DNA from: Candidatus Poribacteria bacterium
GTDB lineage: Bacteria > Poribacteria > WGA-4E > WGA-3G
Assembly: GCA_022826805.1 (NCBI GenBank)
Contig: JAJDUH010000024.1
Coordinates: 140,611-204,610 of the forward strand
Reading direction: 5' to 3'
Length of the DNA stretch: 64,000 nt
Shown in pieces: positions 7,455-36,812 of this stretch (the stretch's first letter is position 1; each line of letters begins with the position of its first letter). A program made the position numbers and the translations under genes. The notes beneath the pieces are model-generated. The model did no database searches, was not told where the DNA came from, and worked only from the letters and a program-made list of their open reading frames with translations.

Positions 7455-8012
7455 ATGAAAAATTTATGTCAAATTTGCTGTGAAAAAACAAAAAAAATGT
7501 GCGCTTTTGCCCTTATTCTGTGTCTAATTTGGGGGTTGACACCGGCTGCGAAGGGTATTTCGGTTAAATTAAGAGGGAAAATTGCGTTGGCTGGGATTTT
7601 GTCAGGGCTTACATATTTGACACACGCCCTTGTTACGCGTGACAGGCGGGCAGTGGAGAAACTACGGCTCCATCTTGGCCCACCTGAGCGTATGGTTCAG
7701 TTTGAACAGGGATTCGATTTGTGGCGTATTGACTATTATGAGGAACAGTGCTATATGTTTCGGAACAACCGATTTATCAAGTCTGCACCGTGCCTTGACC
7801 TGCAGTCGGAACATCAAGGGCATATTCGTATTGAGACTTGCAGGTGTAGGTTTGTTCCACCATTTCTTATTGATACGCCTGTTTTAGGGACCCCCAGGTT
7901 GTTGCGGCTTTGCCCTTTGCATCCACAGCGAGCCCCTCAATTTGTATCTTCCGGTCTCTATCGGTTGGAAGACGGACGTTTGCTTGATCCGCAGCCGTGG
8001 CTTTCACGTTAG
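7455..8012 (+). CDS. Hypothetical exported/membrane protein
   Basis: A 185-residue frame not recognised as a known family. Residues 13-35 form a hydrophobic signal-like segment and residues 42-60 a second apolar stretch. The middle (about residues 65-115) is basic and aromatic and looks like genuine coding sequence. The last ~48 codons run antisense to the 3' end of the convergent carbohydrate-binding-like gene, so the natural C-terminus may have been lost and the frame may simply read through. No ribosome binding site is evident before the ATG. Confidence 0.45.
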   Translation: MKNLCQICCEKTKKMCAFALILCLIWGLTPAAKGISVKLRGKIALAGILSGLTYLTHALVTRDRRAVEKLRLHLGPPERMVQFEQGFDLWRIDYYEEQCYMFRNNRFIKSAPCLDLQSEHQGHIRIETCRCRFVPPFLIDTPVLGTPRLLRLCPLHPQRAPQFVSSGLYRLEDGRLLDPQPWLSR

Positions 8013-8541
8013 TTGTCACGAAAATTGCGTCTAACATAGTAGCATCTTCGCGCACTGCGATACGTAGAAACGTCTCACCCGCTTTGTTGAACTTCCATTC
8101 TCGGTCGAATGTCCCACCGTCTAACCAGTGATTGATGCGGTCCCAATGCCATTCGGCACCTTGACCAACGCCCCAACGAAACTGTGTATTCTGGGTCGCC
8201 TGTGCATTTTCGTCTGGGTCGGCGGGTTGCCATGTCACCCAGAAAGAATCGCTATTGCCATCCCATGCGATGACGTGGCCCCAGAGAGCGTACTTACCGG
8301 CTTCGGGAATGTTGATAATAAAATCGGCGTGGCCTGCACCGCCGCCCCCGGCTACCGGTGCACCTTCCATCCAGATGAATTTTCCATCAGATGCGTTTTT
8401 ATCGTCCGTAATAATCATCGGATCTACGATATCTTGGGCTAACTCTGCTTCAAGGGCAATCTCAACCTCGGCACCGAGTTTTGCTGATCCAAATACAAAT
8501 GCCGTTAATATAGCCAGCAACAAAATTGTGCGGTATTTCAT
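7867..8541 (-). CDS. Secreted carbohydrate-binding-like protein with C-terminal tail motif
   Basis: Protein of 224 residues: signal peptide (residues 1-24, no lipobox), then a jelly-roll type module resembling CBM6/CBM35-like galactose-binding domains (AExA at the start, G-rich FIWMEG-x-PVAGGGG, SFWVTWQP, WHWDRINHWLDGG, IAVREDATMLDAIFVT). The end is KAATTWGSLKQAYQ, a tail shared with four other secreted proteins here. Start supported by AAGGAGG 5 nt upstream. It is a clear paralogue of the next gene (8708-9361). Probably binds glycans outside the cell; the sugar specificity cannot be read from the sequence. Confidence 0.75.
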   Translation of the reverse strand: MKYRTILLLAILTAFVFGSAKLGAEVEIALEAELAQDIVDPMIITDDKNASDGKFIWMEGAPVAGGGGAGHADFIINIPEAGKYALWGHVIAWDGNSDSFWVTWQPADPDENAQATQNTQFRWGVGQGAEWHWDRINHWLDGGTFDREWKFNKAGETFLRIAVREDATMLDAIFVTTNVKATAADQANVRLPTDRDRKIQIEGLAVDAKGKAATTWGSLKQAYQ

Positions 8542-8561
8542 TGTTACCTCCTTCCTTATTT

Positions 8562-8702
8562 TAGTTATCGGTTATCAGTTATCAGTTGTCGGTTAAGAGC
8601 GATTTGTAACAATCTCCCCAAACTTGGGGTATTCCAAACAGTGGTGAATTGTTGCAGAGATCCTCTTTGACTGATAACTGACAACTAACAACTGACAACT
8701 AT
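8562..8702. repeat. Long palindromic repeat, family R1
   Basis: Arms TTAGTTATCGGTTATCAGTTATCAGTTGTCGGTT and AACTGATAACTGACAACTAACAACTGACAACT enclose TTGTAACAATCTCCCCAAACTTGGGG and GAATTGTTGC. Fills the whole gap between the two paralogous carbohydrate-binding-like genes. Confidence 0.8.
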
Positions 8703-8707
8703 TAAAA

Positions 8708-9361
8708 CTATCTTCCGGCTTTGAGTTTCGCCCATGTTGTAGCGAGCTTATCTTGGGGTTCAACAGGTACTAAGGAATCAGCTGGAATAGGATCGCGAGG
8801 TCCTACTTCTGCTTCATCGTCAGAAAGATTGTCGGTGATGAAGATCACATCCAACATAGTAGCGTCTTCCCGAACTGCTATCCGGAGTGTGGTTTCCCCA
8901 GCGTCCTCTATTTCCCATTCCCGTTCAAACGTGCCACCGTCAAGCCAGTGGTTAATTCGATCCCAGTGCCAGTCGTTGCCTTGGGCGACGCCCCAGCGGA
9001 ACTCGGTGTTCTGGGTTTCTTGAGCGTTTTCATCTGGGTCGGCGGGTTGCCATGTCACCCAGAAGGAATCACTGTTACCATCCCATGCGATGACTTTGCC
9101 CCAGAGTGCGTAGGTGCCGGCTTCTGGAATAGGCAAAATGTATTCTGCCCAACCTTCACCACCGCCACCGGCGACTGGAGGTCCTTCCATCCATATAAAC
9201 TGACCTCCAGAAGCATCTGCGTCGTCGGCGACTTCCATCGGTGCTTCGATCGCATCCGCCATTTCTGCCTCAATTGCCCACTCATAGCCATAACTTATAC
9301 CGCTTGTTAGCAGTAAGCCGAACATGAAAAGTATACCTAATACTAAAGTTGTGAAACGCAT
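8708..9361 (-). CDS. Secreted carbohydrate-binding-like protein with C-terminal tail motif (paralogue)
   Basis: Same architecture as the 7867-8541 product: signal peptide (residues 1-24, LLTSGISYG, no lipobox cysteine), a CBM6/35-like module with FIWMEGPPVAGGGG, SFWVTWQPADPDEN, WHWDRINHWLDGG and IAVREDATMLD, then a Pro/Asp-rich linker and the tail KLATTWAKLKAGR at the stop. The frame opens at 9496, but ATG 9361 is followed directly by a typical signal peptide and preceded by AGGAG, so it is chosen. Tandem duplication with its neighbour is evident; the linker is longer here. Function is probably extracellular glycan binding. Confidence 0.75.
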   Translation of the reverse strand: MRFTTLVLGILFMFGLLLTSGISYGYEWAIEAEMADAIEAPMEVADDADASGGQFIWMEGPPVAGGGGEGWAEYILPIPEAGTYALWGKVIAWDGNSDSFWVTWQPADPDENAQETQNTEFRWGVAQGNDWHWDRINHWLDGGTFEREWEIEDAGETTLRIAVREDATMLDVIFITDNLSDDEAEVGPRDPIPADSLVPVEPQDKLATTWAKLKAGR

Positions 9362-9382
9362 AAGGTTTCTCCTTTTTTTAAG

Positions 9383-9684
9383 GGTTATTAGTTGTTGGTT
9401 AAGAGTTCTCTGGGAACAATCACTCCAAATTTTTCCCATACGCGGAGAACTATGGTGGATTATACAATTAACTTTACACTTCAATCGGCGCGGCATGTAA
9501 AGCTAAGACAAATTGTGCTTTAATAGCACAATTTCAAACCGCGCCTATCAGTAGGGGTCAATATATTTTGATAATTCACTATAAATCTGTCTTGGCTTTA
9601 CATTCTTGGAATACGCCGAGAATCGGTAAATTGTTACATAAAGACCTCTTCGCTGATAACTGACAACTAACAACTGACAACTAT
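9383..9684. repeat. R1-family repeat, apparently split by an insertion
   Basis: The left part (GGTTATTAGTTGTTGGTTAAGAG, GAACAATCACTCC) and the right part (AAATTGTTACATAAAGACCTC ... ACTGACAACTAACAACTGACAACT) look like two halves of an R1 element, separated by about 100 bp that carry their own terminal inverted repeats (see 9496-9602). Confidence 0.6.
9496..9602. mobile_element. MITE-like 107-bp element nested in R1
   Basis: Ends are TGTAAAGCTAAGACA (9496-9510) and TGTCTTGGCTTTACA (9588-9602), inverted repeats matching at 14 of 15 positions. Inside is a hairpin (AATTGTGCTttaatAGCACAATT). No open frame and no clear target-site duplication. A related half-end, TGTAAAGCAAAGACAAA, occurs at about 26520. 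Confidence 0.55.
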
Positions 9685-9688
9685 TTTG

Positions 9689-10648
9689 TTATGGGGTTCG
9701 GATTTTGCCCCACTGTTGAATTCGTAACCCTAACGGTTCTATAGGGAGCGTGTCTGAACCGATGTGCCATTTCGGTTGTGCTGCCCATGCCCCGTTGTTA
9801 ATCAATTCGCGGCGTTCACTACCATCAGCACGCATGAGATGAATAACCCATCTGCCGTCTTTCTCAAATTGGAAAGCGATGGTATCACCATCAGGTGCCC
9901 ATGCTGGGACGGCTTCATCTGTTGGTGTGTCAGTAAGTGCTTGTTTATTTCCGCCATCTGCTGCGTCCATGACGTACAAGTCAAAGTCAGCAAGTACTGC
10001 CTTTTGGTGCATGGCGGCGTATACAATCCGTGTACCGTCGGGTGCCCATGCCGGATAGGTATCCATTAACGGTTGATGTGTCAGCCTCCGTTCAACTCGG
10101 CTGTTTACATTGACGACGTATATGTCCCAGTTAAGTTCCCGTTTTGAGTGAAAGACAAGCGTATTTCCATCAGGTGCCCAGGTGGGTGCTTCGTCTTCAA
10201 ACAGATTTTCCGTAACATGGACTACCTTATTGTTATCAAGATGGAACAGGTAGATGTTAAAATGCCCGTCGCGATTTGATGTGAAAGCGAGGCGTTTACC
10301 ATCGGGTGCCCACGCTGGGGCTTTATCCGTTGCGGGGTGATGCGTTAATCGCTGCTGATTGGTGCCATCAGCCTGCATGAGGTAAATTTCATGATTTCCA
10401 TCACGCCGTGAAAAAAATGCGATCCGCGTGCCGTTAGGTGCCCACGTTGGATAGTAGTCCGCGGCAGGATTACGCGTGAGATTTACCGGAGGTTTCCCGA
10501 CGGTATCTGTCAGGTAGATTTCCCAGTCGCCACTCACATCCGAAGCGAACGCTATCGTCACTGGCGGATGTGGCTGGCACAAGGCACTGTCGATTAAAAG
10601 GGCAAACACCCAAAAAAAACTACTCTGACATACTAACAGAATTCGCAT
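9689..10648 (-). CDS. TolB-like beta-propeller protein (PD40 repeats)
   Basis: Protein of 319 residues with a signal peptide (to about residue 24) and six PD40 repeats of the pattern PxWAPDGxxIAFxSxRDGxxxIYLM. These build a TolB-type six-bladed propeller in the periplasm or outside the cell. Family members usually mediate protein contacts; no enzyme motif is seen. The C-terminus (EPLGLRIQQWGKIRTP) may be a weak version of the tail motif shared by its neighbours. It is not the pal-linked tolB, since no tol/pal genes are present. Confidence 0.75.
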   Translation of the reverse strand: MRILLVCQSSFFWVFALLIDSALCQPHPPVTIAFASDVSGDWEIYLTDTVGKPPVNLTRNPAADYYPTWAPNGTRIAFFSRRDGNHEIYLMQADGTNQQRLTHHPATDKAPAWAPDGKRLAFTSNRDGHFNIYLFHLDNNKVVHVTENLFEDEAPTWAPDGNTLVFHSKRELNWDIYVVNVNSRVERRLTHQPLMDTYPAWAPDGTRIVYAAMHQKAVLADFDLYVMDAADGGNKQALTDTPTDEAVPAWAPDGDTIAFQFEKDGRWVIHLMRADGSERRELINNGAWAAQPKWHIGSDTLPIEPLGLRIQQWGKIRTP

Positions 10649-10729
10649 TTTTTTGTCTATGGTTTTTATGGTTGTCGGTTTTTGGTTGTCAGTTATCGGT
10701 AAATGATCTTAACGGTGTAGTGCTAAGAA

Positions 10730-11749
10730 TCAAAATTTTCCGTCGCGCACCTCGAAATGGGTTGGTTTGCGAAGCGTTGTGCCATTAATCTGAACCCATT
10801 CCGCTACCCATTCGATCATTTGCCCTAAGGAGACGCGTGGATATCCAAATAACTGGTGACACAGAGAGGCGTTGCTTAACAGGGCTGTTGCTGCCTCTTC
10901 ACCTTCAAAACGTGGTGATTTCTTGAAAAACGCGCCGAAACATGACGCAAGGTATCGGACAGAGACAGTCTCTGGGCCTGTTACGTTGAGAATCAACGGT
11001 GGACTTTGACAGTGTGCTAAAGCCCGTAATGCTATCGCATTCGCATCGCCTTGCCAGATTACATTCACATTTCCCATTTCGAGGGAGATTGGTGCTTCCG
11101 TGTAAACTTTTTTGGCGATATCCAGGAGTATTCCGTAGCGGAGGTCTATGGCGTAGTTCAATCGTAAAATTGCCATCGGGGTACCGAATTGTGATGAGAA
11201 ATGGGTGCATATCCGTTCACGGCTTAGACAGGATTGTGCGTATTCACCGATCGGTGCAACGGGTGAACTCTCAGTTGAACCGCCGTAAGAGACCGGGGTC
11301 AGCGGATAGACATTCCCGGTTGAGAAAACGACTAACCGAGAATCGCGGAATTTTTCCGCCACGCGTCCAGGCATGTAGCTGTTCATCGCCCAAGTCAGAT
11401 TTTCATTGCCTGTAGAACCAAACTTCCTTCCCACCATAAAAATTACGTTTTGCGTATCAGGTAGGTTTTGCAGGCTGTTTTCTGAGAGCAGGTCAGCAGT
11501 GATTGTTTCGATACCGGCTTCTTGTAAGTTTTCTTGTACACTGGGTGTCGAAAAACGGGAGACTCCAATTACTTTTTTGGTAAGACCTGCGCGGTCGATG
11601 GCGCGTTTTGCCTGTTTAGCGAGCGTTGGTCCCATCTTTCCGCCGACGCCGAGGATAAGGATATCCCCTTCCAGTGCAGCGATTGCCGCTACCACCTCGT
11701 CTGTCGGTTTGGATAAATACGATTCTAATTGGATTTCTGTTTTAATCAA
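10730..11749 (-). CDS. NAD(P)-dependent epimerase/dehydratase (atypical SDR)
   Basis: A 339-residue protein with a Rossmann fold. The nucleotide loop GVGGKMG (residues 34-40) replaces the usual GxxGxxG, followed by VVFSTGNVYP and EYAQSCLSRE (the YxxxR/K region of extended SDRs) and RLNYAIDLRYG. The YxxxK lysine is not obvious, so the catalytic type is uncertain; substrates of related proteins are sugar nucleotides or similar. The frame starts with TTG (11749); no better ATG exists near the N-terminus. No operon partner suggests a pathway. Confidence 0.65.
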   Translation of the reverse strand: MIKTEIQLESYLSKPTDEVVAAIAALEGDILILGVGGKMGPTLAKQAKRAIDRAGLTKKVIGVSRFSTPSVQENLQEAGIETITADLLSENSLQNLPDTQNVIFMVGRKFGSTGNENLTWAMNSYMPGRVAEKFRDSRLVVFSTGNVYPLTPVSYGGSTESSPVAPIGEYAQSCLSRERICTHFSSQFGTPMAILRLNYAIDLRYGILLDIAKKVYTEAPISLEMGNVNVIWQGDANAIALRALAHCQSPPLILNVTGPETVSVRYLASCFGAFFKKSPRFEGEEAATALLSNASLCHQLFGYPRVSLGQMIEWVAEWVQINGTTLRKPTHFEVRDGKF

Positions 11750-11836
11750 GAGAGAGGACCTGTAGATCTAAGATGTTAAAAAATTTGACGACGATTGGGA
11801 TTTTTCGTCGCCTTTCTCTAAAGCAGATATGTATGA

Positions 11837-11860
11837 GGGACAGGCTCTGAAACCTGTCCC
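11837..11860. repeat. Hairpin GGGACAGG/CCTGTCCC
   Basis: An 8-bp perfect stem with an 8-nt loop in the gap between the LamG gene (stop at 11874, minus strand) and the SDR gene. There is no T-run directly after the stem on either strand, so it is more likely a repeat remnant than an intrinsic terminator. Confidence 0.4.
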
Positions 11861-11873
11861 CATTGTCTTTCGA

Positions 11874-12662
11874 CTAATATTCAGCCTTGATACTTGCCCA
11901 TGTAGTGCTTAGTTTCTCTCTGGGATCAACGGCAAATAGAACGCCGTCGTTCATGTCAGCCTTAATCTCGTCCTCACTCAAGGCGCGCGTATAGAAGGCG
12001 AACTCGTCAACGAACCCGTTGAGGTATTGAATATCTGCCTCGTTATCCTTACAGAGGACGATGGCACCGGTGGGTGCAGCGAAGATCGAAGTTTTTCCAC
12101 TCCAATCCTCTTCCCCTGTCACTCTACCGTTGAAGTAAGACTTCTGAACCTTGCCGTCATAAGTGCCAGCGATATGTACCCACTTTTTAGTCGGTAGAGT
12201 TGGGATGGGTGTACGATGTGCTGTGCTTTTGGTATCGTAGACGTAGAAAGTCATGTCCGCGGGTCCTTCAATGAAGGTTTCGGCGGGCCACGCTCCGGCG
12301 GCATTCAATGATTCCCAGACTTGCTGGACACCGCCGGTAAGTGCATTAAGCATTACCCAATGTTCCACAGTAAACTCTGTTAACTCAGTATCGGTGATAC
12401 CTGGTATCTCTGGTGGCGATTTGATAGCAGTTTTCGCGCCATCACACTCCAGTGCGCCACCAAGTTTGCCTTCCTTGCTCCATTCCCCGCCATCTATTTC
12501 AGCATCAAACCCGTTACCTGTGTCATCTATAGCCTCTTTATCATCATCTTCGTCGAAGGAGTAGTAGATTATCAGGTCGGGGTCGTTCCGAATCGCTTCA
12601 ACGTTTGCTGAAAGTGCGAGGACAGCACAGAAAACTAACCAAAAGAGTAACCTTTTCATCAT
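11874..12662 (-). CDS. Secreted LamG-domain protein with C-terminal tail motif
   Basis: A 262-residue protein: signal peptide (residues 1-24), then a concanavalin-like LamG/pentraxin fold opening with IIYYSFDEDD and continuing with GLGGALECDG-like strands, WVHIAGTYDG, and YLNGFVDEFAFYTRALSEDEI. It ends in PREKLSTTWASIKAEY, the tail shared with four other exported proteins. LamG modules bind glycans or proteins outside the cell. GGAG stands 4 nt before the first ATG and 7 nt before the second (12659), so initiation may be at either. It is paralogous in fold, not closely in sequence, to the next gene. Confidence 0.75.
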   Translation of the reverse strand: MMKRLLFWLVFCAVLALSANVEAIRNDPDLIIYYSFDEDDDKEAIDDTGNGFDAEIDGGEWSKEGKLGGALECDGAKTAIKSPPEIPGITDTELTEFTVEHWVMLNALTGGVQQVWESLNAAGAWPAETFIEGPADMTFYVYDTKSTAHRTPIPTLPTKKWVHIAGTYDGKVQKSYFNGRVTGEEDWSGKTSIFAAPTGAIVLCKDNEADIQYLNGFVDEFAFYTRALSEDEIKADMNDGVLFAVDPREKLSTTWASIKAEY

Positions 12663-12809
12663 GATTCTCCTTTTCTATTTTTAGACAGAAAGCCTAAAGT
12701 GTTAGAGGTTTTAATGGTTGGTTGACAAGTTATCGTTCGATGGGTCATTGCTGGCGAAATTTTAAACCTCGCCAGCGACAGTGTATATGTCTTTAGACAA
12801 TAAACCGGG

Positions 12810-13595
12810 TTATCTGTTCGACTTGATGTTCGCCCAAGACGTGGTGAGTTTTCCTTGTGGTTCTACGGGAGTTAGAAATGACGCTGCATCTTGGTCCATG
12901 CTCGCTTTGATCTCGTCGGCTGAGAGTGCGCGATTCCAAAGCCGAACCTCGTCCACGGTCCCCGTCCACGCTTCACCGCCCCAGGTGCCGATTGTCACCG
13001 CACTTGTATTTGCGGCAGGGGCAACAGGGTTGCCGGATTCTTCAGAGTGGGTTACCTCACCATCTACGTAAATTTCCACTAAGCCGTTGGTGTCGTCTGT
13101 ATGGGTATAGGCGAGATAATACCATTTGCCTGTATCGAGTGCTGTTGCGTTATCATTGATGTCTTTGAATCCACCGGCTGCCCCGTTTGTCCAGACTTTG
13201 ATACCGTTTGCTGGATTCATACCGAACCCGAAACCGATATGCCGGGTGGCAGCACTCTGCCGAGTACCGAAGATAATAGCGTGTGCGCTTGGTAGCCTAT
13301 CGAGGTTCACCCATGCTGCTTGCGTGATTGCACCTTCGATGTGGAAGGCAGCATCGTCTTCAATGAGGACGTGATCTGCAGCAGCCGCAAATTGGAGTGC
13401 TTGTCCGTGTTGTCCGGCGACCCATTTTGCGTTACCCATGACTTCGCCTTCAAAGCCGTTTACGGAGAAGTCTTGCGTCGCGGTCCCTGAGCCTTCATCG
13501 AGAGGCATGTATAGAACAAGCCCATCCATTAGGTCGGCGTGAGAAAATGCGGCGCAGAGAAGTAGGCAGAATGTGATAATTGAAAAGATTTTCAT
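12810..13595 (-). CDS. Secreted LamG-domain protein with C-terminal tail motif
   Basis: Protein of 261 residues from ATG 13595, chosen because AAGGAG precedes it and a signal peptide follows; the open frame itself reaches 13646. The LamG fold is visible as LVLYMPLDEGSG, GQALQFAAAADHVLIED, ITQAAWVNLDRL, KWYYLAYTHTDD, IYVDGEV and VDEVRLWNRALSADEI. The end is PQGKLTTSWANIKSNR, the shared tail. Probably extracellular, binding polysaccharide or matrix. It lies 147 bp upstream of the other LamG gene and may be co-transcribed with it. Confidence 0.78.
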   Translation of the reverse strand: MKIFSIITFCLLLCAAFSHADLMDGLVLYMPLDEGSGTATQDFSVNGFEGEVMGNAKWVAGQHGQALQFAAAADHVLIEDDAAFHIEGAITQAAWVNLDRLPSAHAIIFGTRQSAATRHIGFGFGMNPANGIKVWTNGAAGGFKDINDNATALDTGKWYYLAYTHTDDTNGLVEIYVDGEVTHSEESGNPVAPAANTSAVTIGTWGGEAWTGTVDEVRLWNRALSADEIKASMDQDAASFLTPVEPQGKLTTSWANIKSNR

Positions 13596-13752
13596 CTGGT
13601 CTCCTTCGTTGAAAATTGAGAAGTCTAATGTTATTCTGGAATACAAAGAGTAAAAGATAATAGTTGTTCTCTTCTATCTCAATTAAATTCTAACAGATTA
13701 TGATTTCTGTTTCAATAGAGAAAATTTTGCAAGGCAAAGCGTTAGGCGCACG

Positions 13753-14703
13753 TCATGGAGATACACTTTTTGCACAGCGGAATCCAAGCGCACCGATACC
13801 GGCGTATGCTGGCGTCGTACCGTGGCGATTTGAGGCACGCAACCACTCAGGTTCGCTGTTCCATCCACCACCCCGCAGTACACGGAAATCTACAATATTC
13901 TCGAAATCATTGACAATTTCCTCAACATTGTTTGCCCCTGCGGTCGGATTACGACGTGGGGAATTGGCATAGAAATCAACCTCGTATCCGTCAAGGCACC
14001 ATTCCCAGACATTTCCGGCGATGTCATATACACCGTATTCGTTGGGAGGATACTCGCTGATAGGGGTTGTCTCGCCGATGTTTTTGCCGTAGTTTGCCCT
14101 ATTAAAATTGATTCCGTTACCCCACGGATACTGTTTTCTTTTTAATCCGCCGCGTGCTGCTTTCTCCCATTCCGCTTCAGTCGGTAAACGCTTATCCACC
14201 CAGACTGCATAAGCCATCGCAGCGTACCAGCTTACATAACGCACAGGATGATCGCTTTTTCCAAGCGGATAGTTATTTCCATTCCAGTCATTTAGGTAAT
14301 TAGCATCGGCGAATCTGTCGTCAATAAGTTCTTTTTGCCACGCTGGATTCGCGAGAACGAAGTCCTTAAATTTCCTGTTGGTTACCTCGTTTGCGTCTAT
14401 GTAAAACGTGTCAAGGTGAACGGTGTGCACCGGCTGTTCGTCGTTATCGGCATCACCGTCGTTGCTACCCATCTGAAACTCGCCTTCTGGAATTAGGACC
14501 ATTCCGTCTGGAATAATGGGTTCGGGTTCAGGGATAATTTCCGGTTCGAGTGCAGGATCGGGATCGGTCGCTGCGTTTGGCTCCGCGCTTATCAGTTCTT
14601 CTGAGGTAAGCTCTGAGTCATCTTCGCGCGTACCGCAGCTGAGTATGTAAATGGAGAACAGACATACAAGTGCGAAGCTTAACAGTTTCAATACGTTTTT
14701 CAT
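13753..14703 (-). CDS. Lipoprotein with formylglycine-generating-enzyme-like (SUMF1) domain
   Basis: A 316-residue lipoprotein: signal peptide with lipobox YILSC (Cys ~23), an acidic Pro-rich linker (EPEPIIP), then a full FGE-sulfatase domain from about residue 66 (DGMVLIPEGEFQMGS, DEVTN-like DANEVTNRKF, HPVRYVSWYAAMAYAVW, RLPTEAEWEKAARGG, GNVWEWCLDGY, RGGGWN, GFRCAK). Classic FGE activates sulfatases by oxidising a cysteine, but most bacterial lipoprotein members have other or no known activity, and no sulfatase gene is near. The protein lacks the KLxTTW tail of its neighbours, consistent with lipid anchoring. Confidence 0.8.
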   Translation of the reverse strand: MKNVLKLLSFALVCLFSIYILSCGTREDDSELTSEELISAEPNAATDPDPALEPEIIPEPEPIIPDGMVLIPEGEFQMGSNDGDADNDEQPVHTVHLDTFYIDANEVTNRKFKDFVLANPAWQKELIDDRFADANYLNDWNGNNYPLGKSDHPVRYVSWYAAMAYAVWVDKRLPTEAEWEKAARGGLKRKQYPWGNGINFNRANYGKNIGETTPISEYPPNEYGVYDIAGNVWEWCLDGYEVDFYANSPRRNPTAGANNVEEIVNDFENIVDFRVLRGGGWNSEPEWLRASNRHGTTPAYAGIGALGFRCAKSVSP

Positions 14704-14730
14704 AATTTTAACACAAGTTGCCCTTTCACA

Positions 14731-14803
14731 GACATAGCACTCCGCTGGAGTGCGGCAGTTTACACATCCCCTTTTCTATAGACATAGCACTCCGCTGGAG
14801 TGC
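14731..14803. repeat. Duplicated palindrome GCACTCC-GCT-GGAGTGC
   Basis: Two copies of a unit (GACATAGCACTCCGCTGGAGTGC) at 14731-14753 and 14781-14803, each a 7-bp hairpin with a 3-nt loop, 50 bp apart. They lie between glnT-like and FGE-like genes; no T-run follows, so they are repeats rather than clear terminators. Confidence 0.7.
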
Positions 14804-14817
14804 AAGAATGATATGCT

Positions 14818-16152: not shown

Positions 16153-16377
16153 GAAATTAGTCTCCAATGGTTTACATAGAAGATGATGTCTTGGAAGTAA
16201 AATTAAAAATTGCTTCTACGATGGTATGATGGGACTGGTATAAATATACTAACTACAAAATGGGGAAACATGGTAACATTATAACTGAAGTCCTGAAAAT
16301 TGCAATATCTAATCTTTGAGCAGCACGTTTTAGAAACCTATAAGCTGCGCCAAAAGCGTGGGTTGAGGAGGCAACTG

Positions 16378-26624: not shown

Positions 26625-26663
26625 TTAAAGTCAAGAGACAAACAAAGGAGGCTACAAAAAACA

Positions 26664-27929: not shown

Positions 27930-27949
27930 AATTTTGAAAAGGAGTGCTT

Positions 27950-29062: not shown

Positions 29063-29074
29063 TTGTCAGTCAAC

Positions 29075-30247: not shown

Positions 30248-30274
30248 ACAAACAATTTCTTGTCTGTTTAAAAA

Positions 30275-30304
30275 CAAACAACGGGCGGCATTGCCCGTTG
30301 TTTG
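30275..30304. terminator. Bidirectional intrinsic terminator
   Basis: Perfect 12-bp stem CAAACAACGGGC/GCCCGTTGTTTG with a 6-nt loop between convergent genes. On the minus strand it is followed by GTTTTTAAAC and on the plus strand by CATTTTC, so it can end both the ferritin-side operon and the permease transcript. Confidence 0.85.
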
Positions 30305-30333
30305 CATTTTCAGTATGTTTTGTTCTCGTGAGA

Positions 30334-30795
30334 TTACTTTTGCTCAAATTCCTTGAGGAACCCGATAAATTCCCTGCGGTGTTTCTCTTCATCGGCGAGA
30401 AGTTTGATGCAGAGGTCTTGCGTAACATAATCAATCCCGTCGCACATACGAATAATCTTATTGTATTGATCGCACGCGAGGTTTTCTGCCTCGATGACCC
30501 CACGGATCGTTGATATAAGGTCTGTGGAATCTTTCGGCGGTTGGAGCGATGCCTGCTCTGCTTTAAAGCTGAACGAACCTGGCACCCTGCCGCCGATTTC
30601 CTTGATACGATTTGCTAATTCTTGGGCGTGTGCTAATTCCGCTTCGATATCTGTTGCTAGGGATTTCTTAATCTCTTCGGCGCGGATACCATCTAAATCG
30701 ACCGAAATTGCAATATAGTTAATTGTTGCCTCTACTTCGAGCCAATAGGCACAGGTGAGTTCTTCTATGATAGTGTTGGTTGTTACTTGACTCAT
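30334..30795 (-). CDS. Ferritin-like di-iron protein
   Basis: Four-helix ferritin-like protein of 153 residues. Metal-ligand candidates are spaced as expected: Glu in YWLEVEATINY, the ExxH pair in DIEAELAHAQEL, Glu in VIEAENLACDQY, and the ExxH of LLADEEKHRREF. Resembles bacterioferritin/Dps-like ferritin-domain proteins; could store iron or detoxify peroxide in the cytosol. As the last gene of the heme-uptake cluster it may take up iron released from heme. AGGAG upstream supports the start. Confidence 0.8.
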   Translation of the reverse strand: MSQVTTNTIIEELTCAYWLEVEATINYIAISVDLDGIRAEEIKKSLATDIEAELAHAQELANRIKEIGGRVPGSFSFKAEQASLQPPKDSTDLISTIRGVIEAENLACDQYNKIIRMCDGIDYVTQDLCIKLLADEEKHRREFIGFLKEFEQK

Positions 30796-30913
30796 GATGT
30801 ATCTCCTATGTAGATGATTACATTTTAATTAAACTGTTAATTTGCCTAATTAGTTTACCATAACTTAAGACGAAGTTCAACTGTTTTCTGTTTCAGAAAT
30901 GTCGATGAAATTT

Positions 30914-31684
30914 CTACAGGATATTCAAACTCGGCATCACCCACGGATAGCCATTGGGATGTGGTAGCACCTCAAATGGGATACCGTAGGTTTCTGATAG
31001 GAGATCCAAAGTTAGCACAGTTTTGGGGGGACCGCACGCAATAGAAATCCCATTTTTCAATAGCAACAGTTGATCGGCGTACATTGATGCGAGATTCAGA
31101 TCGTGGATGGCTGTAATAACGGTTTTGCCTCGACTGCAAATCGTTTTGCACAAGTTGAGTATCTGAACTTGGTGCTTCGGGTCCAGATGATTGGTGGGTT
31201 CGTCGAGTAAAAACAGTCCTGGGACTTGCGTAAGAATTCGAGCAAAATCGACGCGACTCGCTTCGCCACCGGATAGGGTCGGATAGAGCCGTTCCTCAAA
31301 TATATCAGCTTCGACTTGTTGTAGCGCTTCTTTGGCAATTGAGACGTCGTCGGTTGTCTCTTTTGTGCCGTTGAGGTGCGGATGTCGACCAAACAGCGCG
31401 ACCTCCAAACTGGTAAAAGGGAAGTTTATATCTCGTTTTTGTTGGAGATAGGCACGGAGGCGTGCTAATTCTTTTGGTTCGTAGTTATGAATAGGTTTGT
31501 CAAAGAGCCGAATTTCACCAGTCGTTGGTATAAGTTCTCCAGAAATTAGCCGCAGAAGTGTCGATTTCCCCGCCCCGTTGGGACCGACGAAACCCCACAA
31601 CATTCCGCTTTTGATTGTGGCGTTGATGTTCCGGACTAACCACTTCCCGCCAATGCGGTAACCAACCTGTTCCAATTCAATCAT
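30914..31684 (-). CDS. hmuV: Heme ABC transporter ATPase
   Basis: 256-residue ATPase of the iron/heme (FecE/HmuV) family. Walker A is GPNGAGKS at residues 34-41, Q-loop YLQQKRDINFPFT, signature LSGGEASRV, Walker B LFLLDEPTNHLD, switch His in AIHDL. Pairs with the FecCD permease gene 12 bp upstream and HmuT. HmuV members use the LSGGE signature and the short size seen here; other metallo-chelate ATPases are possible but the HmuR/HmuY neighbours favour heme. Confidence 0.92.
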   Translation of the reverse strand: MIELEQVGYRIGGKWLVRNINATIKSGMLWGFVGPNGAGKSTLLRLISGELIPTTGEIRLFDKPIHNYEPKELARLRAYLQQKRDINFPFTSLEVALFGRHPHLNGTKETTDDVSIAKEALQQVEADIFEERLYPTLSGGEASRVDFARILTQVPGLFLLDEPTNHLDPKHQVQILNLCKTICSRGKTVITAIHDLNLASMYADQLLLLKNGISIACGPPKTVLTLDLLSETYGIPFEVLPHPNGYPWVMPSLNIL

Positions 31685-31696
31685 TGTATTTGCTTC

Positions 31697-32692
31697 CTAT
31701 AGAAAGACTTCGCGTTTAAATCTGAGTAGTAGCCAGAGGAAGAATGGACCACCGATGAGTGCTGTGACGATGCCAACGGGCAATTCTGCAGGTGCAACGA
31801 TAGTTCGTGAAAATAGGTCTGCTGAGACGAGCAGTATCGCGCCTCCTACTGCTGAACCGGGGAGTACATACCGATGATCTGCCCCGCCTAAGAGTCTTAA
31901 GAGATGTGGCACGACGAGTCCGACAAAACCGATACCACCTGCTGCTGAGACTGCAGCACCTACCGTTAGCGCAACACCAAAAACCGACCACCGTTTCAAA
32001 GTATCTGTTGAAACGCCGAGATGATACGCTTCAGATTCTCCCAAACTCATTGCATTCAGTGCCGCTGCCTGTCGTGACAACACAAACAACCCTATAATTG
32101 CAATCGGCAGGGTAATAAACACAACGGGCCATGTTGAACCGCCGAAACCGCCAAGCAGCCAAAAGGTTAGACTGCGCAGTTCCTCTTCGTCAGCAAGGAA
32201 GGTCATTAATCCGATACCTGCGCCAGCGAAACTGTTGAGGGCGATACCTGCGAGTAATAACGTTAGCGTTTGAACTTTTCCCTCTCCCTCCGCAATTTTC
32301 CATACACAGATCGTCACAAGCATCCCACATATAAAAGCGGCAATAGGTAGTCCCCACACACCTAACGCACCCCCACCGACAAGGACGATCCAGAGCGTTG
32401 CACCTAACCCTGCACCGGCTGTGACACCGATTAATCCCGGGTCTGCCAGTGGATTGCGAAAAATGCCTTGGAGTGTGGCGCCTGATATTGCTAACATCGC
32501 ACCAACAACAGCGGATAGAATGACACGCGGAAACCGTACGTGGACCAGAACTGCGAAGCCGTTTTCTCGGAAAAATAGAATCTCAGGGATGCGCCACGGT
32601 AGAATTTGATATGCCCCTATCCCCGCCGCGAGGCACATTGATACTGGAAGTAAACTGATGAGGATGAGCAGAATTTTCGTTCGCTTTTGCAT
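31697..32692 (-). CDS. hmuU: Heme ABC transporter permease (FecCD family)
   Basis: 331-residue FecCD permease with about nine to ten helices; typical motifs are RFPRVILSAVVGAMLAISGATLQGIFRNPLADPGLIGVTAGAGLGA, and GFVGLVVPHLLRLLGGADHRYVLPGSA. Forms the membrane channel of the HmuTUV transporter, moving heme from periplasm to cytosol. Followed by hmuV after 12 bp. Separated from hmuT by rpsD and a short propeller remnant. Confidence 0.92.
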   Translation of the reverse strand: MQKRTKILLILISLLPVSMCLAAGIGAYQILPWRIPEILFFRENGFAVLVHVRFPRVILSAVVGAMLAISGATLQGIFRNPLADPGLIGVTAGAGLGATLWIVLVGGGALGVWGLPIAAFICGMLVTICVWKIAEGEGKVQTLTLLLAGIALNSFAGAGIGLMTFLADEEELRSLTFWLLGGFGGSTWPVVFITLPIAIIGLFVLSRQAAALNAMSLGESEAYHLGVSTDTLKRWSVFGVALTVGAAVSAAGGIGFVGLVVPHLLRLLGGADHRYVLPGSAVGGAILLVSADLFSRTIVAPAELPVGIVTALIGGPFFLWLLLRFKREVFL

Positions 32693-32746
32693 ACGTGGGA
32701 TTCGACTTGGATTTGAGAGTGTTGTGTGAGTACCTCAGTTGTGTTT

Positions 32747-33055
32747 TTACGGCTTTCCAATACAAATCAGTCTTTTTCCTGTATGAATCAGGAACGCACC
32801 ATTAATAGCTGCTACCCCATAGACTCGACTTTCTATTGTTAATGCATTCTTACTCACGATAGAGGGTGCTGCTGCCTGCTGTTTTGAGGGAGCTTGTATT
32901 ACAGTTGTGTCTCCATCCTTGCCGAAGAAGTAGAGTTTGTCTCCTGCAACAATCGGTGATGCCCAACTTGAATCTTCTTGGAAAGCCGAATTTTCGAGTA
33001 TTACTGCAAAGAGTAAACAAAAGAACAGTGATGATTTGACTGTCATTTCTTTCAT
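32747..33055 (-). CDS. Short PQQ-propeller-like protein, probable remnant
   Basis: 102 residues: signal-like N-terminus (residues 6-23), then one repeat SSWASPIVAGDKLYFFGKDG, a spacer, and VYGVAAINGAFLIHTGKRLICIG. These two pieces match the start and end of a blade pair in PQQ-like beta-propeller proteins, which normally have six to eight blades over more than 350 residues. The simplest reading is a gene reduced by internal deletion but still in frame. Function doubtful. It lies between rpsD and hmuU. Confidence 0.5.
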   Translation of the reverse strand: MKEMTVKSSLFFCLLFAVILENSAFQEDSSWASPIVAGDKLYFFGKDGDTTVIQAPSKQQAAAPSIVSKNALTIESRVYGVAAINGAFLIHTGKRLICIGKP

Positions 33056-33074
33056 AACGTTTCTGAAGTGCAGG

Positions 33075-33689
33075 TCAAAGTAGACGCGAATAGTATTCTA
33101 TTACCAAGGGAAGTTCTAAAGGGAAGGGAACAGCATCAGCCTTTGGGAGCGACATAATTCGTATGGACACTGTTGATTCGTCAAATTCAAGCCACTCGGG
33201 ATGGCGCAATTCGGGACCGTCTAACAGTGCGATCTGAATGGGCTCAAGTTTTAGACTTTTTTCACGCGGTCGAATTACATCACCAATCTTGACACGGTAT
33301 GATGCGATATTGACGCGTTTATTGTTAACTGTTATATGATTATGATTGACTATTTGGCGTGCCGCAGGGATTGTCGGTGCAAGCCCTCCTCGAAAAACGA
33401 CATTATCAAGGCGGCGTTCGAGTAGTTCAATTATTTTATCGCCTGTTAAAGTTTTGCTTCGGATCGCTTCGCGAATAATTCGGCGAAGTTGGCGTTCGCT
33501 TACACCATAATTGAAACGTAGTTTCTGTTTTTCGATCAAACGAAGTTTATAGTCTTTAGGTCTCTGGGAATCTTGTCCGTGTTCACCTGGTCTGTAAGGG
33601 CGCTTGGCTATTGTTTTTCGGGAAAGTCCGGGTAGATCTACACCCAAAGCCCGCATCTTTTTTACCCTCGGTCCAGTATGTCGTGCCAT
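33075..33689 (-). CDS. rpsD: 30S ribosomal protein S4
   Basis: 204 residues, full length. Binds 16S rRNA early in 30S assembly. N-terminal RHTGPRVKKMRALGVDLPGLSRK and KRPYRPGEHG, then the S4 RNA-binding domain (ERRLDNVVFRGGLAPTIPAARQIVNHNHITVNN) and the GDVI block. The zinc-binding cysteines of the C+ type are absent. AGGAG precedes the ATG. Its position inside a heme-uptake cluster, away from the alpha operon (rpsM-rpsK-rpsD-rpoA-rplQ), is unusual. Whether it is the only copy cannot be told here. Confidence 0.95.
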   Translation of the reverse strand: MARHTGPRVKKMRALGVDLPGLSRKTIAKRPYRPGEHGQDSQRPKDYKLRLIEKQKLRFNYGVSERQLRRIIREAIRSKTLTGDKIIELLERRLDNVVFRGGLAPTIPAARQIVNHNHITVNNKRVNIASYRVKIGDVIRPREKSLKLEPIQIALLDGPELRHPEWLEFDESTVSIRIMSLPKADAVPFPLELPLVIEYYSRLL

Positions 33690-33798
33690 CTAAATGTTCT
33701 CCTATGAATAAAATTGTGCTTATGTTTTTATATAGATTCTACTGCAATGGAGTGCAGCGTTTAAGCCTTTCTGGGTTTTGAAATAGATTAGTCCGTTC

Positions 33799-34764
33799 TT
33801 AAGGCTTTTCTTTCTCTCCTGTGGCAGCGAAATACCCTTTGGTTTCGTAAATGCCTCGGAACAGATCGAGCGCAGCGCGCCCACAGCGGGGCCCGAATCC
33901 AGATAGATATTGTCCATCTAATGTTACGACGCGTCTGTTCTGTCCTGCTGGTGTGTGTGCTAAGCCCGGCAATTTAAGCAATCCGTCGATACCACCAACA
34001 GATTTCAGACTTGTGGGAAATAGGACATAGACATCTGGTTGTGCAGCAATTACTGCTTCCGCCGTCATTGGTTTGCTTCCTTCGATGTTTGCTGCTGCAT
34101 TCTCAGCCCCAATAATATCAAACATTGCCCCGGGTGCTGTGTCTGTTCCTAACACCAAAGTGGTTTGTGTGCCTCGTAAGTAGAGGAACAGTGCTTTCTG
34201 TTTCGACTGTTCCTTTCGCGAAGCGAGTTTGATTTCCAGTTTTTTAATATCAGCGTCTAAGGCTTCTATTAATTTCTCAGCCTGTTCCTTGCTTCCCACT
34301 GCTTTACCGATTGTTTGTAAGCGTTGCTTGGCTGTCTCAAAGCTGCGCGGCTCCTCAAGCAGTAAAACGGTTACGCCCGCCATACGGAGTTGTTGCACGA
34401 CCTGTGGTGGTCTCACATCGATGCGTCCAATTACCAGTGTTGGATTCAGAGAGAGAATCCCTTCGGCGTTGAGTCCATACTGATAGCCGACGCTTGGCAG
34501 CTTCTCTCTCACACCTTTTGGATATGTTGATGAAGCATCGCAGCCGACTACGTTATCGCCGACCTCTAAGGCAAACAAGATTTCGGTGGTGCTACCGTTG
34601 AGACTCACAATACGTTCTGATGATGTGATGACCACGGTATTGCCGTCTGCATCTGTTACCTCAATTGAATCTGCGACAGCGATGCAGAGTAGCATGCCGA
34701 ACAGGATGAAGAGCGAGACACTTAATATCCATGCCTTGAACAAGATTGACTGAAGGATTTGCAT
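33799..34764 (-). CDS. hmuT: Heme ABC transporter substrate-binding protein
   Basis: 321 residues from ATG 34764 (signal peptide follows directly; frame open to 34854). Cluster A periplasmic binding protein of the HmuT/BtuF fold: VTDADGNTVVITSSERIVSLNGSTTEILFALEVGDNVVGCD, PSVGYQYGLNAEGILSLNPTLVIG, and FGPRCGRAALDLFRGIY. Delivers heme to HmuUV. HmuT proteins usually coordinate heme with a tyrosine; a Tyr in VGYQYG is a candidate. Upstream lies HmuY, downstream rpsD. Confidence 0.9.
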   Translation of the reverse strand: MQILQSILFKAWILSVSLFILFGMLLCIAVADSIEVTDADGNTVVITSSERIVSLNGSTTEILFALEVGDNVVGCDASSTYPKGVREKLPSVGYQYGLNAEGILSLNPTLVIGRIDVRPPQVVQQLRMAGVTVLLLEEPRSFETAKQRLQTIGKAVGSKEQAEKLIEALDADIKKLEIKLASRKEQSKQKALFLYLRGTQTTLVLGTDTAPGAMFDIIGAENAAANIEGSKPMTAEAVIAAQPDVYVLFPTSLKSVGGIDGLLKLPGLAHTPAGQNRRVVTLDGQYLSGFGPRCGRAALDLFRGIYETKGYFAATGEKEKP

Positions 34765-35036
34765 TTTTTTTCTCCGTATGAAAATGAGTAGTTGGGCATG
34801 GTACCCGTCCAGGTTTAAGGAGTTTATGATGTACGGTGTTTCCATACCCAACATTCATGGACTCGGTGTCCAGTTGTTCAGTATAAAGTTCTTTACCACT
34901 GGGTCGCTGGTAACTTTCCTTAAGTTTGTCAAAAGAGAAATACAATAGTAACTCTGGAATCTGCCTATCACAGTTGTGGCTGTGAAAATCGAATATTTAA
35001 ACCAGAAACAGATACGAGTTTTATATTCTGCGTTGT

Positions 35037-35759
35037 TTAAAAATTAGGGCTGCCGTCCGGTTGATGGACATATTCAAACGTTATGAAACCGCTATCCTTC
35101 TTGTTTTCGTTATCTTTGTAATACCCAACAAAGCGAAGTTTGGCGAATGTCCCATCTGCGGCTTTCACGACAAACACTCGATCTTCTAAAGGGAGAATCC
35201 AGTGTGCCGGCGGACCCGTGTAGACATACCAACCTTTCTCGCTTTGCGGGACGATCCCAAGTGTGTCTTCTGTGTCAGCGAGGTAACCATCTGCTGGTGC
35301 TACAGTTACGGCTTCAAAAGTTGTTTCAGTGAGCATGACAACGCTACCCATTCCTGGACCGCTGATGCCACCATTAAGTTTGACTTGCGTCCGTTGGAAC
35401 CCGATGTCCCATGCTTCCGAATTTACGGCATCTGCAACTTCAACAACGTCGCCAGTCGCGAAAGAGAAGTACGCCCACCCTTCTCTATTTGTCGCGTCGA
35501 TTGTGAACGTCATAGCCTCTGGACCTATGGGTTGGTCAACTGGTACCTGGGCATCAGTTACAGTCGCTGTGGATGACGTTGCCTCGGTGGTTTCCTCCGC
35601 TTGAAGCAGATGGTTAAGATTTTCGTCGTCAACGGTATCGCAACTGGAAGCAAAAAGGACGATAACGCCAAATGTTAATACAAAAAAGGTCTTCGCAATA
35701 TGAGCTTGCAAACTGCGCTCTAAAGCGTGTCGCTTGACAAAATCTTTTGTTTTTTCCAT
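35037..35759 (-). CDS. hmuY: HmuY-family heme-binding lipoprotein
   Basis: 240-residue lipoprotein from ATG 35759 (AGGAG upstream). The lipobox is ASSC near residue 40, after an unusually long N-region. HmuY domain blocks: FTIDATNREGWAYFSFATGD, EAWDIGFQRTQVKLNGGISGPG, WYVYTGPPAHWILP, AKLRFVGYYKDN, GFITFEYVHQPDGSPNF. HmuY captures heme at the cell surface and passes it to the receptor HmuR, encoded upstream. Unlike its paralogue at 36156 it has a lipid anchor and no KLxTTW tail. Confidence 0.88.
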   Translation of the reverse strand: MEKTKDFVKRHALERSLQAHIAKTFFVLTFGVIVLFASSCDTVDDENLNHLLQAEETTEATSSTATVTDAQVPVDQPIGPEAMTFTIDATNREGWAYFSFATGDVVEVADAVNSEAWDIGFQRTQVKLNGGISGPGMGSVVMLTETTFEAVTVAPADGYLADTEDTLGIVPQSEKGWYVYTGPPAHWILPLEDRVFVVKAADGTFAKLRFVGYYKDNENKKDSGFITFEYVHQPDGSPNF

Positions 35760-35893
35760 GATAATTCTCCTATTAGTAAACAGCACAAGTGAGTTGAAGT
35801 TCCTACCCCGGTTTTGCGTAGGATTAAAACGATGTAGGGAAATTGGGCTGTTAAAGCCCAATTGAAACCTCAGTAGTTTCCCTACACGCTGGT

Positions 35894-36124
35894 TTAAACT
35901 TTCACAAGTGTATTCATTTTTTGTAAGTCGATTTCCTCGTTTACTGAATCTTCATTCTTCTGTAAAACACGCAATGCTTCGACAAAGACTCCGGCGACCT
36001 GATGGAAATCACAGGCATCCATAGCTATATCTAAGGTACGGTATTTCAGGTGAATATGACCATCAAGACATTGGTAGATGGCGCATACTTGATCTTGTGA
36101 TAAAAATTCTGCTTTGTATCCCAT
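35894..36124 (-). CDS. Small hypothetical protein in heme operon
   Basis: 76 residues, no signal peptide, family not recognised. Cys14, Cys19, His23 and His25 (CAIYQCLDGHIHL) form a possible metal- or heme-binding cluster, and the C-terminal half is helical and acidic. A good ribosome site (AAGGAG) precedes the ATG and it lies between the two hmuY genes, so it is very likely expressed with them. Confidence 0.6.
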   Translation of the reverse strand: MGYKAEFLSQDQVCAIYQCLDGHIHLKYRTLDIAMDACDFHQVAGVFVEALRVLQKNEDSVNEEIDLQKMNTLVKV

Positions 36125-36155
36125 TTCTAATCTCCTTATGGCACGGGGGGCGTGC

Positions 36156-36812
36156 CTATTGGTTAGACTTAATCGCTGCCCACGTTGTTGTTAACTGTCG
36201 TTGTGCATCAACGCTTGTGGGGACAGACTCGATAAAGGAACGGGTGCCATCGTCTTGCAAGGCGTATTCTATGGTAATGTTTCCCGACCCCTCTTTGGTT
36301 TCGTTATTCTCGTAGTAACCGATAAAACGGACTTTCGCATAGTAATATGGACTTGGAGGCTGTGTCTTTGGATCGACGGCAATTCGCAAAGCGTAAACTA
36401 TCGGGTTTGGCAAAACCCAGTGATTCGGCGGTCCAGTATAGGTATACCAACCGTCGCCTCGTGCGAATGTCGCAATTTGGTCGGTGTCTGACACATAGTC
36501 GCCTTCTGGGGCTTCGCGGACATCTTCAAAAGGGATGTCCTTCAAAACCAATGTCCCGGTTTTCCCAGGACCGCTGACGCCCCCATTGGCGATGACCGCG
36601 GTTCGTTTAAAACCGAGGTCCCACGCCATTGAGGTTGCCGGATCGGCTATATCAACTGTTTCGCCTTTAGTGAGGTTGACATAAGCCCAATTCTCACGGT
36701 CGGTCGCATCAACCGTGAGCGTGTTTTGATGGAGTTCAGCAGACGCTGTAAGAACAACGATGCTGACGGTGATAGCCAAGAGTGAAGTTGTGTGAAACAT
36801 GAGCCGTGTCAT
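36156..36812 (-). CDS. hmuY: HmuY-family protein with C-terminal tail motif
   Basis: 218 residues: cleavable signal peptide (SIVVLTASAE, no lipobox), then an HmuY domain (TVDATDRENWAYVNLTKGE, MAWDLGFKRTAVIANGGVSGPGKTG, WYTYTGPPNHWVLP, YAKVRFIGYYENNE, GNITIEYALQDDG). It ends in AQRQLTTTWAAIKSNQ, the tail found on four other exported proteins of this window. The pair of HmuY proteins therefore differs mainly in how it is held at the surface. 37 bp downstream of the HmuR-like receptor gene. Confidence 0.88.
   Translation of the reverse strand: MTRLMFHTTSLLAITVSIVVLTASAELHQNTLTVDATDRENWAYVNLTKGETVDIADPATSMAWDLGFKRTAVIANGGVSGPGKTGTLVLKDIPFEDVREAPEGDYVSDTDQIATFARGDGWYTYTGPPNHWVLPNPIVYALRIAVDPKTQPPSPYYYAKVRFIGYYENNETKEGSGNITIEYALQDDGTRSFIESVPTSVDAQRQLTTTWAAIKSNQ

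What the first reader, a model, noticed from the sequence alone, without database searches (positions are those of the whole stretch)
7867..36812. A common C-terminal tail on exported proteins of unrelated folds
Five products end within a few residues of the same motif: KAATTWGSLKQAYQ (7867), KLATTWAKLKAGR (8708), KLSTTWASIKAEY (11874), KLTTSWANIKSNR (12810) and QLTTTWAAIKSNQ (36156). Their domains differ (CBM-like, LamG, HmuY), so common descent of the whole protein cannot explain it. All five have a cleavable signal peptide with no lipobox, while the lipoproteins here (FGE-like, DUF4856, imelysin, di-heme oxidoreductase, HmuY1) lack the tail. A weak sixth may be LGLRIQQWGKIRTP (9689). I infer a C-terminal sorting or anchoring signal, analogous in position to T9SS CTDs or PEP-CTERM but different in sequence.
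Basis: partly seen in the sequence, partly recalled or inferred. Interest (0 to 1): 0.85.

Follow-up and report, generated by a model that had tools for sequence, protein, structure and literature searches.

The report
Shared address tail on exported proteins
More than a hundred gene products of this bacterium, most with predicted export signals and many of unrelated kinds, end in the same roughly 17-residue tail, which likely works as an address label that a still unidentified partner in the cell envelope would recognise.

Summary
The five tails stand at the stated places; the weak sixth (9689) is a degenerate copy. A strict codon pattern has 91 matches in the 5.09-Mb genome (reversed control 2); 89 end within 16 residues after the conserved K. 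Adding a LamG survey not chosen by the tail gives 129 distinct tailed ends. The 89 fall into about 20 families without detectable homology. Exported forms carry the tail; in two families, paralogues without signal peptide (0 of 7) and lipoprotein paralogues (HmuY, 0 of 30) do not. 83 of 84 genomes of the phylum match; the 84th carries a drifted version, changed in concert in LamG, 3-keto, CBM-like and propeller proteins, as one shared partner would predict. Constraint is on the peptide; the tail is modelled as disordered, almost never with a membrane helix, without cysteine, without a known sorting domain among matches shown. Exosortase is in 3 of 84 genomes, so it is not the partner. SprA-like and C25-peptidase proteins are phylum-wide candidates only. 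A second, Pseudomonadota-labelled lineage has the tail on one protein superfamily. A new sorting or anchoring tag is the best reading; receptor, location and processing are unknown.

The parts
7870..7926 (-). tail VDAKGKAATTWGSLKQAYQ at the end of a CBM-like exported protein (ORF 7867-8541)
8711..8764 (-). tail VEPQDKLATTWAKLKAGR at the end of a CBM-like exported protein (likely start 9361)
   Evidence: AlphaFold2 gives residues 197-217 pLDDT below 50 in a weak model
9692..9742 (-). degenerate tail IEPLGLRIQQWGKIRTP at the end of a PD40 propeller protein (ORF 9689-10648)
   Evidence: sister PD40 proteins carry full tails
11877..11930 (-). tail VDPREKLSTTWASIKAEY at the end of a LamG protein (ORF 11874-12662)
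12813..12866 (-). tail VEPQGKLTTSWANIKSNR at the end of a LamG protein (likely start 13595)
   Evidence: AlphaFold2 gives most of residues 244-258 pLDDT below 50
36159..36212 (-). tail VDAQRQLTTTWAAIKSNQ at the end of a HmuY-family protein with a non-lipoprotein signal peptide (ORF 36156-36812)
35037..35861 (-). contrast: neighbouring HmuY paralogue with a lipobox-like FASSC and no tail
5035..6006 (+). PorV/PorQ-family outer-membrane protein, candidate machinery only, not linked to the tail by any result
   Evidence: NF033709, 125 bits against a cut-off of 90

Best explanation
The C-terminal tail V-[ED]-[PA]-x-x-K-[LA]-x-T-T-W-[GA]-x-[LI]-K-x(1-6) ends proteins of at least four unrelated domain families, most with predicted Sec signal peptides, and likely acts as a sorting or anchoring tag that one shared cell-envelope receptor is predicted to bind. 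Shown: strict C-terminal position, spread over families without detectable homology, absence from the lipoprotein and signal-less paralogues that were read, presence through the phylum, constraint on the peptide rather than the DNA, and concerted drift in one lineage. Inferred: after Sec export and signal-peptide cleavage the flexible tail is bound by the receptor, which holds the protein at the outer membrane or surface or passes it to an outer-membrane translocon, doing for soluble proteins what the lipid does for lipoproteins. Best candidate machinery, untested: the divergent T9SS-like set (SprA-like, PorV/PorQ-family and C25-peptidase proteins) found through the phylum. Whether the tail is cut off is unknown.
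For: 91 matches against 2 for the reversed pattern, 89 at C-termini. 22 blastp components. LamG survey not chosen by the tail: 93 of 97 ORFs tailed in this genome; the four others are a lipoprotein, half of a frameshifted gene, an ORF that stops short, and an 831-aa protein of another kind. HmuY: 15 of 15 ORFs called SPI tailed, 30 of 31 called lipoprotein untailed, the one misfit having its Cys inside the h-region. 3-keto family: 0 of 7 without signal peptide tailed, 14 of 15 others tailed. Concerted drift in G009: T at W-2 in 0 of 27 LamG and 0 of 14 other tails, against 75 of 93 and 14 of 18 in G000 (p=3e-15 and 7e-6), with similar T content of LamG bodies. Random third codon positions and no conserved 3' flank. 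Tail modelled as disordered.
Against: No receptor, cleavage or location data. SprA-like and C25 proteins are also in G009 and only their co-presence is known. Some tails are degenerate (PD40). 131 of 509 untailed ORFs are SPI-like too, so the tail marks a subset of exported proteins. S at W-11 drifts only weakly outside LamG (p=0.027), and 2 of 18 plus 1 of 14 non-LamG tails are assigned to the wrong genome. A fused ECF-sigma/kelch ORF also ends in a tail-like stretch. A second lineage has the tail on one superfamily only, as far as seen.
Confidence: 0.72

Rival explanations
1. Docking peptide: the tail binds a periplasmic or extracellular scaffold, S-layer or matrix protein and builds complexes there, without sorting the protein.
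For: Disordered, invariant short motif; many cargos are sugar-binding or propeller domains.
Against: The trade-off with a lipid anchor in HmuY and in one LamG protein fits retention better than complex assembly.
Confidence: 0.18
2. Stability tag: the tail is read by a C-terminus-specific periplasmic protease or chaperone and controls turnover or folding.
For: Strict distance from the C-terminus, 1-4 residues after K in 74 of 89.
Against: 93 of 97 members of a large family carry it while exported lipoprotein paralogues do not.
Confidence: 0.06
3. No function: the tail spread by gene duplication and end-shuffling and is inherited passively.
For: LamG is a large paralogous family.
Against: Families without detectable homology; tail columns are among the few invariant ones in about 30%-identical LamG proteins, though those rows were chosen as tailed; random third codon positions; concerted drift.
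Confidence: 0.02
4. A DNA or RNA element, such as a recombination site or 3' regulatory element, that happens to be translated.
For: It sits at the 3' ends of genes.
Against: Third-base entropy close to 2 bits at most codons, sampled columns after the stop at 0.00-0.08 bits.
Confidence: 0.01

Closest known systems
MYXO-CTERM / myxosortase (PMC11980579; only the search listing with the start of the abstract seen)
   Same: C-terminal sorting tag, phylum-wide, dozens of proteins per genome according to that abstract
   Different: MYXO-CTERM is tripartite with an invariant cysteine; here 0 of 89 tails have a Cys in the last 20 residues and 1 of 89 has a membrane-helix-like stretch
PEP-CTERM / exosortase (recalled) and GlyGly-CTERM / rhombosortase (PMC3237569, search listing only)
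   Same: Many unrelated exported proteins with one C-terminal signal
   Different: Those signals hold a membrane helix and basic end (recalled); exosortase is in 3 of 84 genomes here. Rhombosortase was not searched
Type IX secretion C-terminal domains (TIGR04183 and kin)
   Same: C-terminal signal on Sec-exported proteins of a diderm; SprA-like and C25 proteins are phylum-wide. PMC3909097 (passages read) reports such domains on poribacterial proteins and no structural genes
   Different: Known T9SS domains are folded and about 70-100 residues (recalled); this tail is about 17 residues, modelled as disordered, and no T9SS domain is among the 25 of 26 matching families shown for 88 tailed proteins
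Encapsulin and microcompartment cargo peptides (recalled)
   Same: Short C-terminal peptides that send unrelated proteins to one place
   Different: Those cargos are cytosolic (recalled); here most tailed proteins have predicted signal peptides and the signal-less 3-keto paralogues lack the tail

Membership tests
PEP-CTERM / exosortase | C-terminal membrane helix followed by basic residues (recalled) | tested here: not met
   1 of 89 tailed proteins has a 15-residue stretch of mean hydropathy 1.6 or more in the last 45 residues
PEP-CTERM / exosortase | Exosortase in the genome | tested here: not met
   PF09721 in 3 of 84 genomes, none in the window's genome
MYXO-CTERM | Invariant cysteine in the C-terminal motif | tested here: not met
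   0 of 89 have Cys in the last 20 residues
GlyGly-CTERM / rhombosortase, LPXTG / sortase | Rhombosortase or sortase in the genome | not tested
   no search made
T9SS substrate with a known C-terminal domain | Match to a T9SS C-terminal domain model | tested here: not met
   none among the 25 of 26 matching NCBIfam families shown for 88 tailed proteins
T9SS substrate (by machinery) | SprA translocon and PorU-type C25 peptidase in the genome | tested here: inconclusive
   SprA model: matches in 83 of 84 genomes, over the cut-off in 1; Peptidase_C25 over the cut-off in 83 of 84; no link to the tail shown, other T9SS parts not searched genome-wide
Lipoproteins | Lipobox cysteine | tested here: not met
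   HmuY: 15 of 16 tailed ORFs have no lipobox-like Cys and the other has it inside the h-region. In LamG of G000 4 of 93 tailed ORFs were called lipo-like by the same rule; by eye they look like h-region cysteines
Encapsulin / microcompartment cargo peptides | Cargo is cytosolic (recalled) | tested here: not met
   76 of 84 tailed ORFs SPI-like
C-terminal sorting tag in general | Tail needed for the location of the protein | not testable with these tools
   needs an experiment

The most novel reading that the evidence does not exclude
Poribacteria have an undescribed protein-sorting pathway whose address label is a disordered C-terminal peptide of about 17 residues, without membrane helix, cysteine or folded domain. 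One co-evolving envelope receptor reads it for more than a hundred proteins per genome as an alternative to lipid anchoring, and a second bacterial lineage has acquired the label.
Probability: 0.5. Interest if true: 0.9.

Novelty: new variant of a known kind. Interest (0 to 1): 0.82.

Why it matters
It would give a whole, largely uncultured phylum a readable address label for its surface or envelope proteins, so that candidates can be listed from sequence alone, and it turns the search for the receptor into a defined problem. Because tail residues drift in concert in one lineage, the receptor should show matching changes, which can be tested by computation without growing the organism.

Tried and rejected
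DNA or RNA element: rejected. Amphipathic helix: not claimed; the hydrophobic moment of the 10-residue core (0.321) lies within its shuffles (mean 0.297, maximum 0.343). Exosortase as partner: rejected. Strict limitation to the phylum: I first took L147 for a misbinned contig; homologues of its two tailed proteins lie on contigs of 2.39-2.95 Mb and end in the tail, so this was dropped. G009 as a tail-less genome: rejected once its proteins were read.

Led nowhere: clustering of neighbour genes for a partner gave mainly families that look generally abundant (TPR-like, dioxygenase-like, oxidoreductase-like, ECF sigma); a one-sequence profile of the end of ORF 89-4855 found only itself; a search with the tail region of 8708 returned 47 proteins that look like the same family; the SprA-like protein has no convincing PDB match (best E 0.15). 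Literature: Poribacteria with C-terminal and sorting signal 0 papers; with genome, secretion, sorting 12; with type IX secretion 3; with LamG 1; with exosortase 2; two wider searches, in the second of which none of the 20 listed papers mentions Poribacteria. Of all these only passages of PMC3909097 were read; the rest were seen as listings. No description of this tail was met there; that is not proof of absence.

Dropped or special rows: 2 of 91 strict matches far from a stop were left out; a 24-aa fragment (L086) was left out of alignment A1; 6 of the 129 distinct tailed ends belong to ORFs or called starts shorter than 160 aa; L091 is a doubtful tail; L461 (SVDPKGKLASQWELYA) and L506 were counted as untailed; HmuY copy L425 (121 aa) fell below the length limit and L451 is a cut copy counted among the 30. 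In some searches, 144 of 147 matches in L095-L204 lie within 25 residues of a stop; the others are L104 (30), L123 (no stop in the piece) and L158. One search lists only part of its matches, so other genomes were read by samples.
Full report
What was checked. The five ORFs end as described: VDAKGKAATTWGSLKQAYQ (7867), VEPQDKLATTWAKLKAGR (8708), VDPREKLSTTWASIKAEY (11874), VEPQGKLTTSWANIKSNR (12810) and VDAQRQLTTTWAAIKSNQ (36156). Pfam gives LamG for two and HmuY for one; the two CBM-like ones have no Pfam match.

Genome scale. A codon pattern for T-[TS]-W-[GA]-x-[LIMF]-K has 91 matches in the 5.09-Mb genome against 2 for the reversed pattern. DNA around them was fetched. 89 of 91 are in frame close to a stop, with 1-16 residues after the conserved K, 1-4 in 74 of 89. 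The pattern itself fixes T, W and K; outside it V at W-10 (77 of 89), P at W-8 (61), K at W-5 (75) and L at W-4 (66) are strongly conserved. Third codon positions are close to random where the residue allows it, and the sampled columns after the stop carry 0.00-0.08 bits, so the constraint is on the peptide.

Unrelated cargos. With signal peptide and tail cut off, the 89 proteins form 22 blastp components: 50, 7, 4, 4, 3, 3, 2, 2 and 14 singletons, one of them a 24-aa fragment. Pfam on 88 of them: LamG 52, 3-keto-disaccharide hydrolase 7, PD40 4, and single matches to HmuY, CBM_4_9, CBM9, BNR, F5/8, LTD, dockerin and others; one SNase match.

Surveys not chosen by the tail. My LamG profile found 97 ORFs in the fetched DNA of this genome (one search reports 97 PF13385 matches; the two lists were not paired one by one). 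93 of 97 end in the tail, 45 with TTW and 48 with variants. The four others are a lipoprotein (L311), the front part of a frameshifted gene (L309), an ORF that stops short (L331) and an 831-aa protein of another kind (L328). The loose tail rule matches 114 of 593 gene calls and 3 of the 593 reversed. Strict and LamG sets together give 129 distinct tailed ends, 6 of them on short or cut ORFs. LamG ORFs of other genomes: 27 of 30 (G009), 21 of 21 (G011), 16 of 17 (G002), 14 of 14 (G004), 8 of 9 (G006), 8 of 9 (G008), 4 of 5 (G023); outside G009 these are samples.

Export link. With a simple rule, of 84 tailed ORFs 76 are SPI-like, 1 lipo-like and 7 neither; of 509 untailed ORFs in the same DNA 131 are SPI-like, 12 lipo-like, 68 otherwise hydrophobic and 298 none. 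Several of the 7 look like missed signal peptides or cut starts. A few tails missed by the strict rule count as untailed there. Paralogue pairs are sharper. HmuY occurs in 29 of 84 genomes; of 46 distinct ORFs read, 15 called SPI are tailed, 30 called lipoprotein are untailed, and one tailed ORF (L435) was called lipoprotein for a Cys inside its h-region (Fisher p=3e-11). In the 3-keto family of G000 and G009, none of 7 proteins that show no signal peptide by eye is tailed, and 14 of the 15 others are. Of PD40 ORFs complete in the fetched pieces, 12 of 14 match the tail rule; the misses are a clear lipoprotein (L505) and a degenerate end (L506). Two of 89 tailed proteins have a membrane-helix-like stretch past residue 50.

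Distribution. 83 of 84 genomes of the phylum have strict matches, 5-114 each against 0-4 for the reversed pattern. The exception, G009, has 31 LamG matches, and its proteins end in a drifted tail such as LSVDPRGKMAAAWASLKRAN. Of the other six, L158, L206 and L212 look like chance; L205 has ORFs 24-39% identical to ORFs of L031 and may be misbinned; L173 is undecided. L147 is titled Pseudomonadota and carries Lon, NifS-like and HU genes. Its two tailed proteins are distant paralogues (26% identity). Of the proteins listed for them (queries included) 17 of 18 and 18 of 20 end in the tail, several on contigs of 2.39-2.95 Mb. So the tail exists in a second lineage, as far as seen on one superfamily. 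That the window is poribacterial is inferred from these matches and from two similar proteins that sources call Candidatus Poribacteria.

Concerted drift. In G009, T at W-2 is found in 0 of 27 LamG tails and 0 of 14 tails from 3-keto, CBM-like and PD40 proteins; in G000 in 75 of 93 and 14 of 18 (p=3.2e-15 and 7.0e-6). S at W-11 rises in LamG (25 of 27 against 15 of 93) and more weakly in the others (6 of 14 against 1 of 18, p=0.027). A model trained on LamG tails alone separates the non-LamG tails of the two genomes (Mann-Whitney p=2.2e-5), with 2 of 18 and 1 of 14 on the wrong side; one G009 PD40 tail (L498) is doubtful. T content of LamG bodies is alike, 5.8% and 5.3%, though A is higher in G009, 10.7% against 7.7%. 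Unrelated proteins changing together is what a shared recognising partner predicts. Only this one strongly drifted genome was analysed in this way.

Structure. AlphaFold2 models the LamG body well (mean pLDDT 79.5) and most of the tail below 50. The CBM-like model is weak (62.4), its last 21 residues lowest. Yet V, K, T, W and K of the tail are among the 14 invariant columns of 24 LamG proteins about 30% identical to the first (rows chosen as tailed). This is how a linear motif bound by another protein behaves. An amphipathic helix is not supported.

Machinery. Exosortase is in 3 of 84 genomes. SprA-family matches are in 83 of 84, over the cut-off in one; the G000 protein is 53-62% identical to three relatives and weakly similar to the one over the cut-off (25% over 337 residues). 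Peptidase_C25 is in 83 of 84. The window holds a PorV/PorQ-family protein (5035-6006) next to a 1588-aa protein whose end weakly matches the end of the PorU model. PMC3909097 (passages) reports T9SS-type C-terminal domains in Poribacteria but no structural genes of the system. These proteins are candidates for reading the tail; only co-presence is known, and G009 has them too.

Verdict. A real, genome-wide and phylum-wide C-terminal tag, mostly on exported, non-lipidated proteins. Sorting or anchoring through one envelope receptor is the best explanation; receptor, final location and processing are open.

Noticed in passing
L147 915-1940 and 1968-3059: Two tailed paralogues in a MAG titled Pseudomonadota; homologues with the tail lie on contigs of 2.39-2.95 Mb, so the tail exists outside Poribacteria.
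   Followed up: partly
L269 7788-14537 and 83 of 84 genomes of the phylum: A 2249-aa protein matching the SprA model below its cut-off, with Peptidase_C25 proteins also in 83 of 84 genomes: a divergent T9SS-like apparatus that PMC3909097 reported as not found.
   Followed up: partly
window 89-6006: A 1588-aa protein whose end weakly matches the end of the PorU model sits next to a PorV/PorQ-family protein.
   Followed up: no
L079 1065-3054: One open frame joins an ECF-sigma-like start to a kelch-like end with a tail-like stretch (KLSTRWDQLKAQ).
   Followed up: no
G008 contigs C167, C29, C45, C114: Open frames of about 1,000-4,400 aa with several LamG matches each.
   Followed up: no
G003, G015, G017 (L265-L268): Exosortase appears in only these three of 84 genomes.
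   Followed up: no
window 7867-10648 and G009 C14 117169-120135: CBM-like genes next to a PD40 propeller gene in both distant genomes.
   Followed up: no
L309: A frameshifted LamG gene in G000 whose second part still ends in the tail.
   Followed up: no
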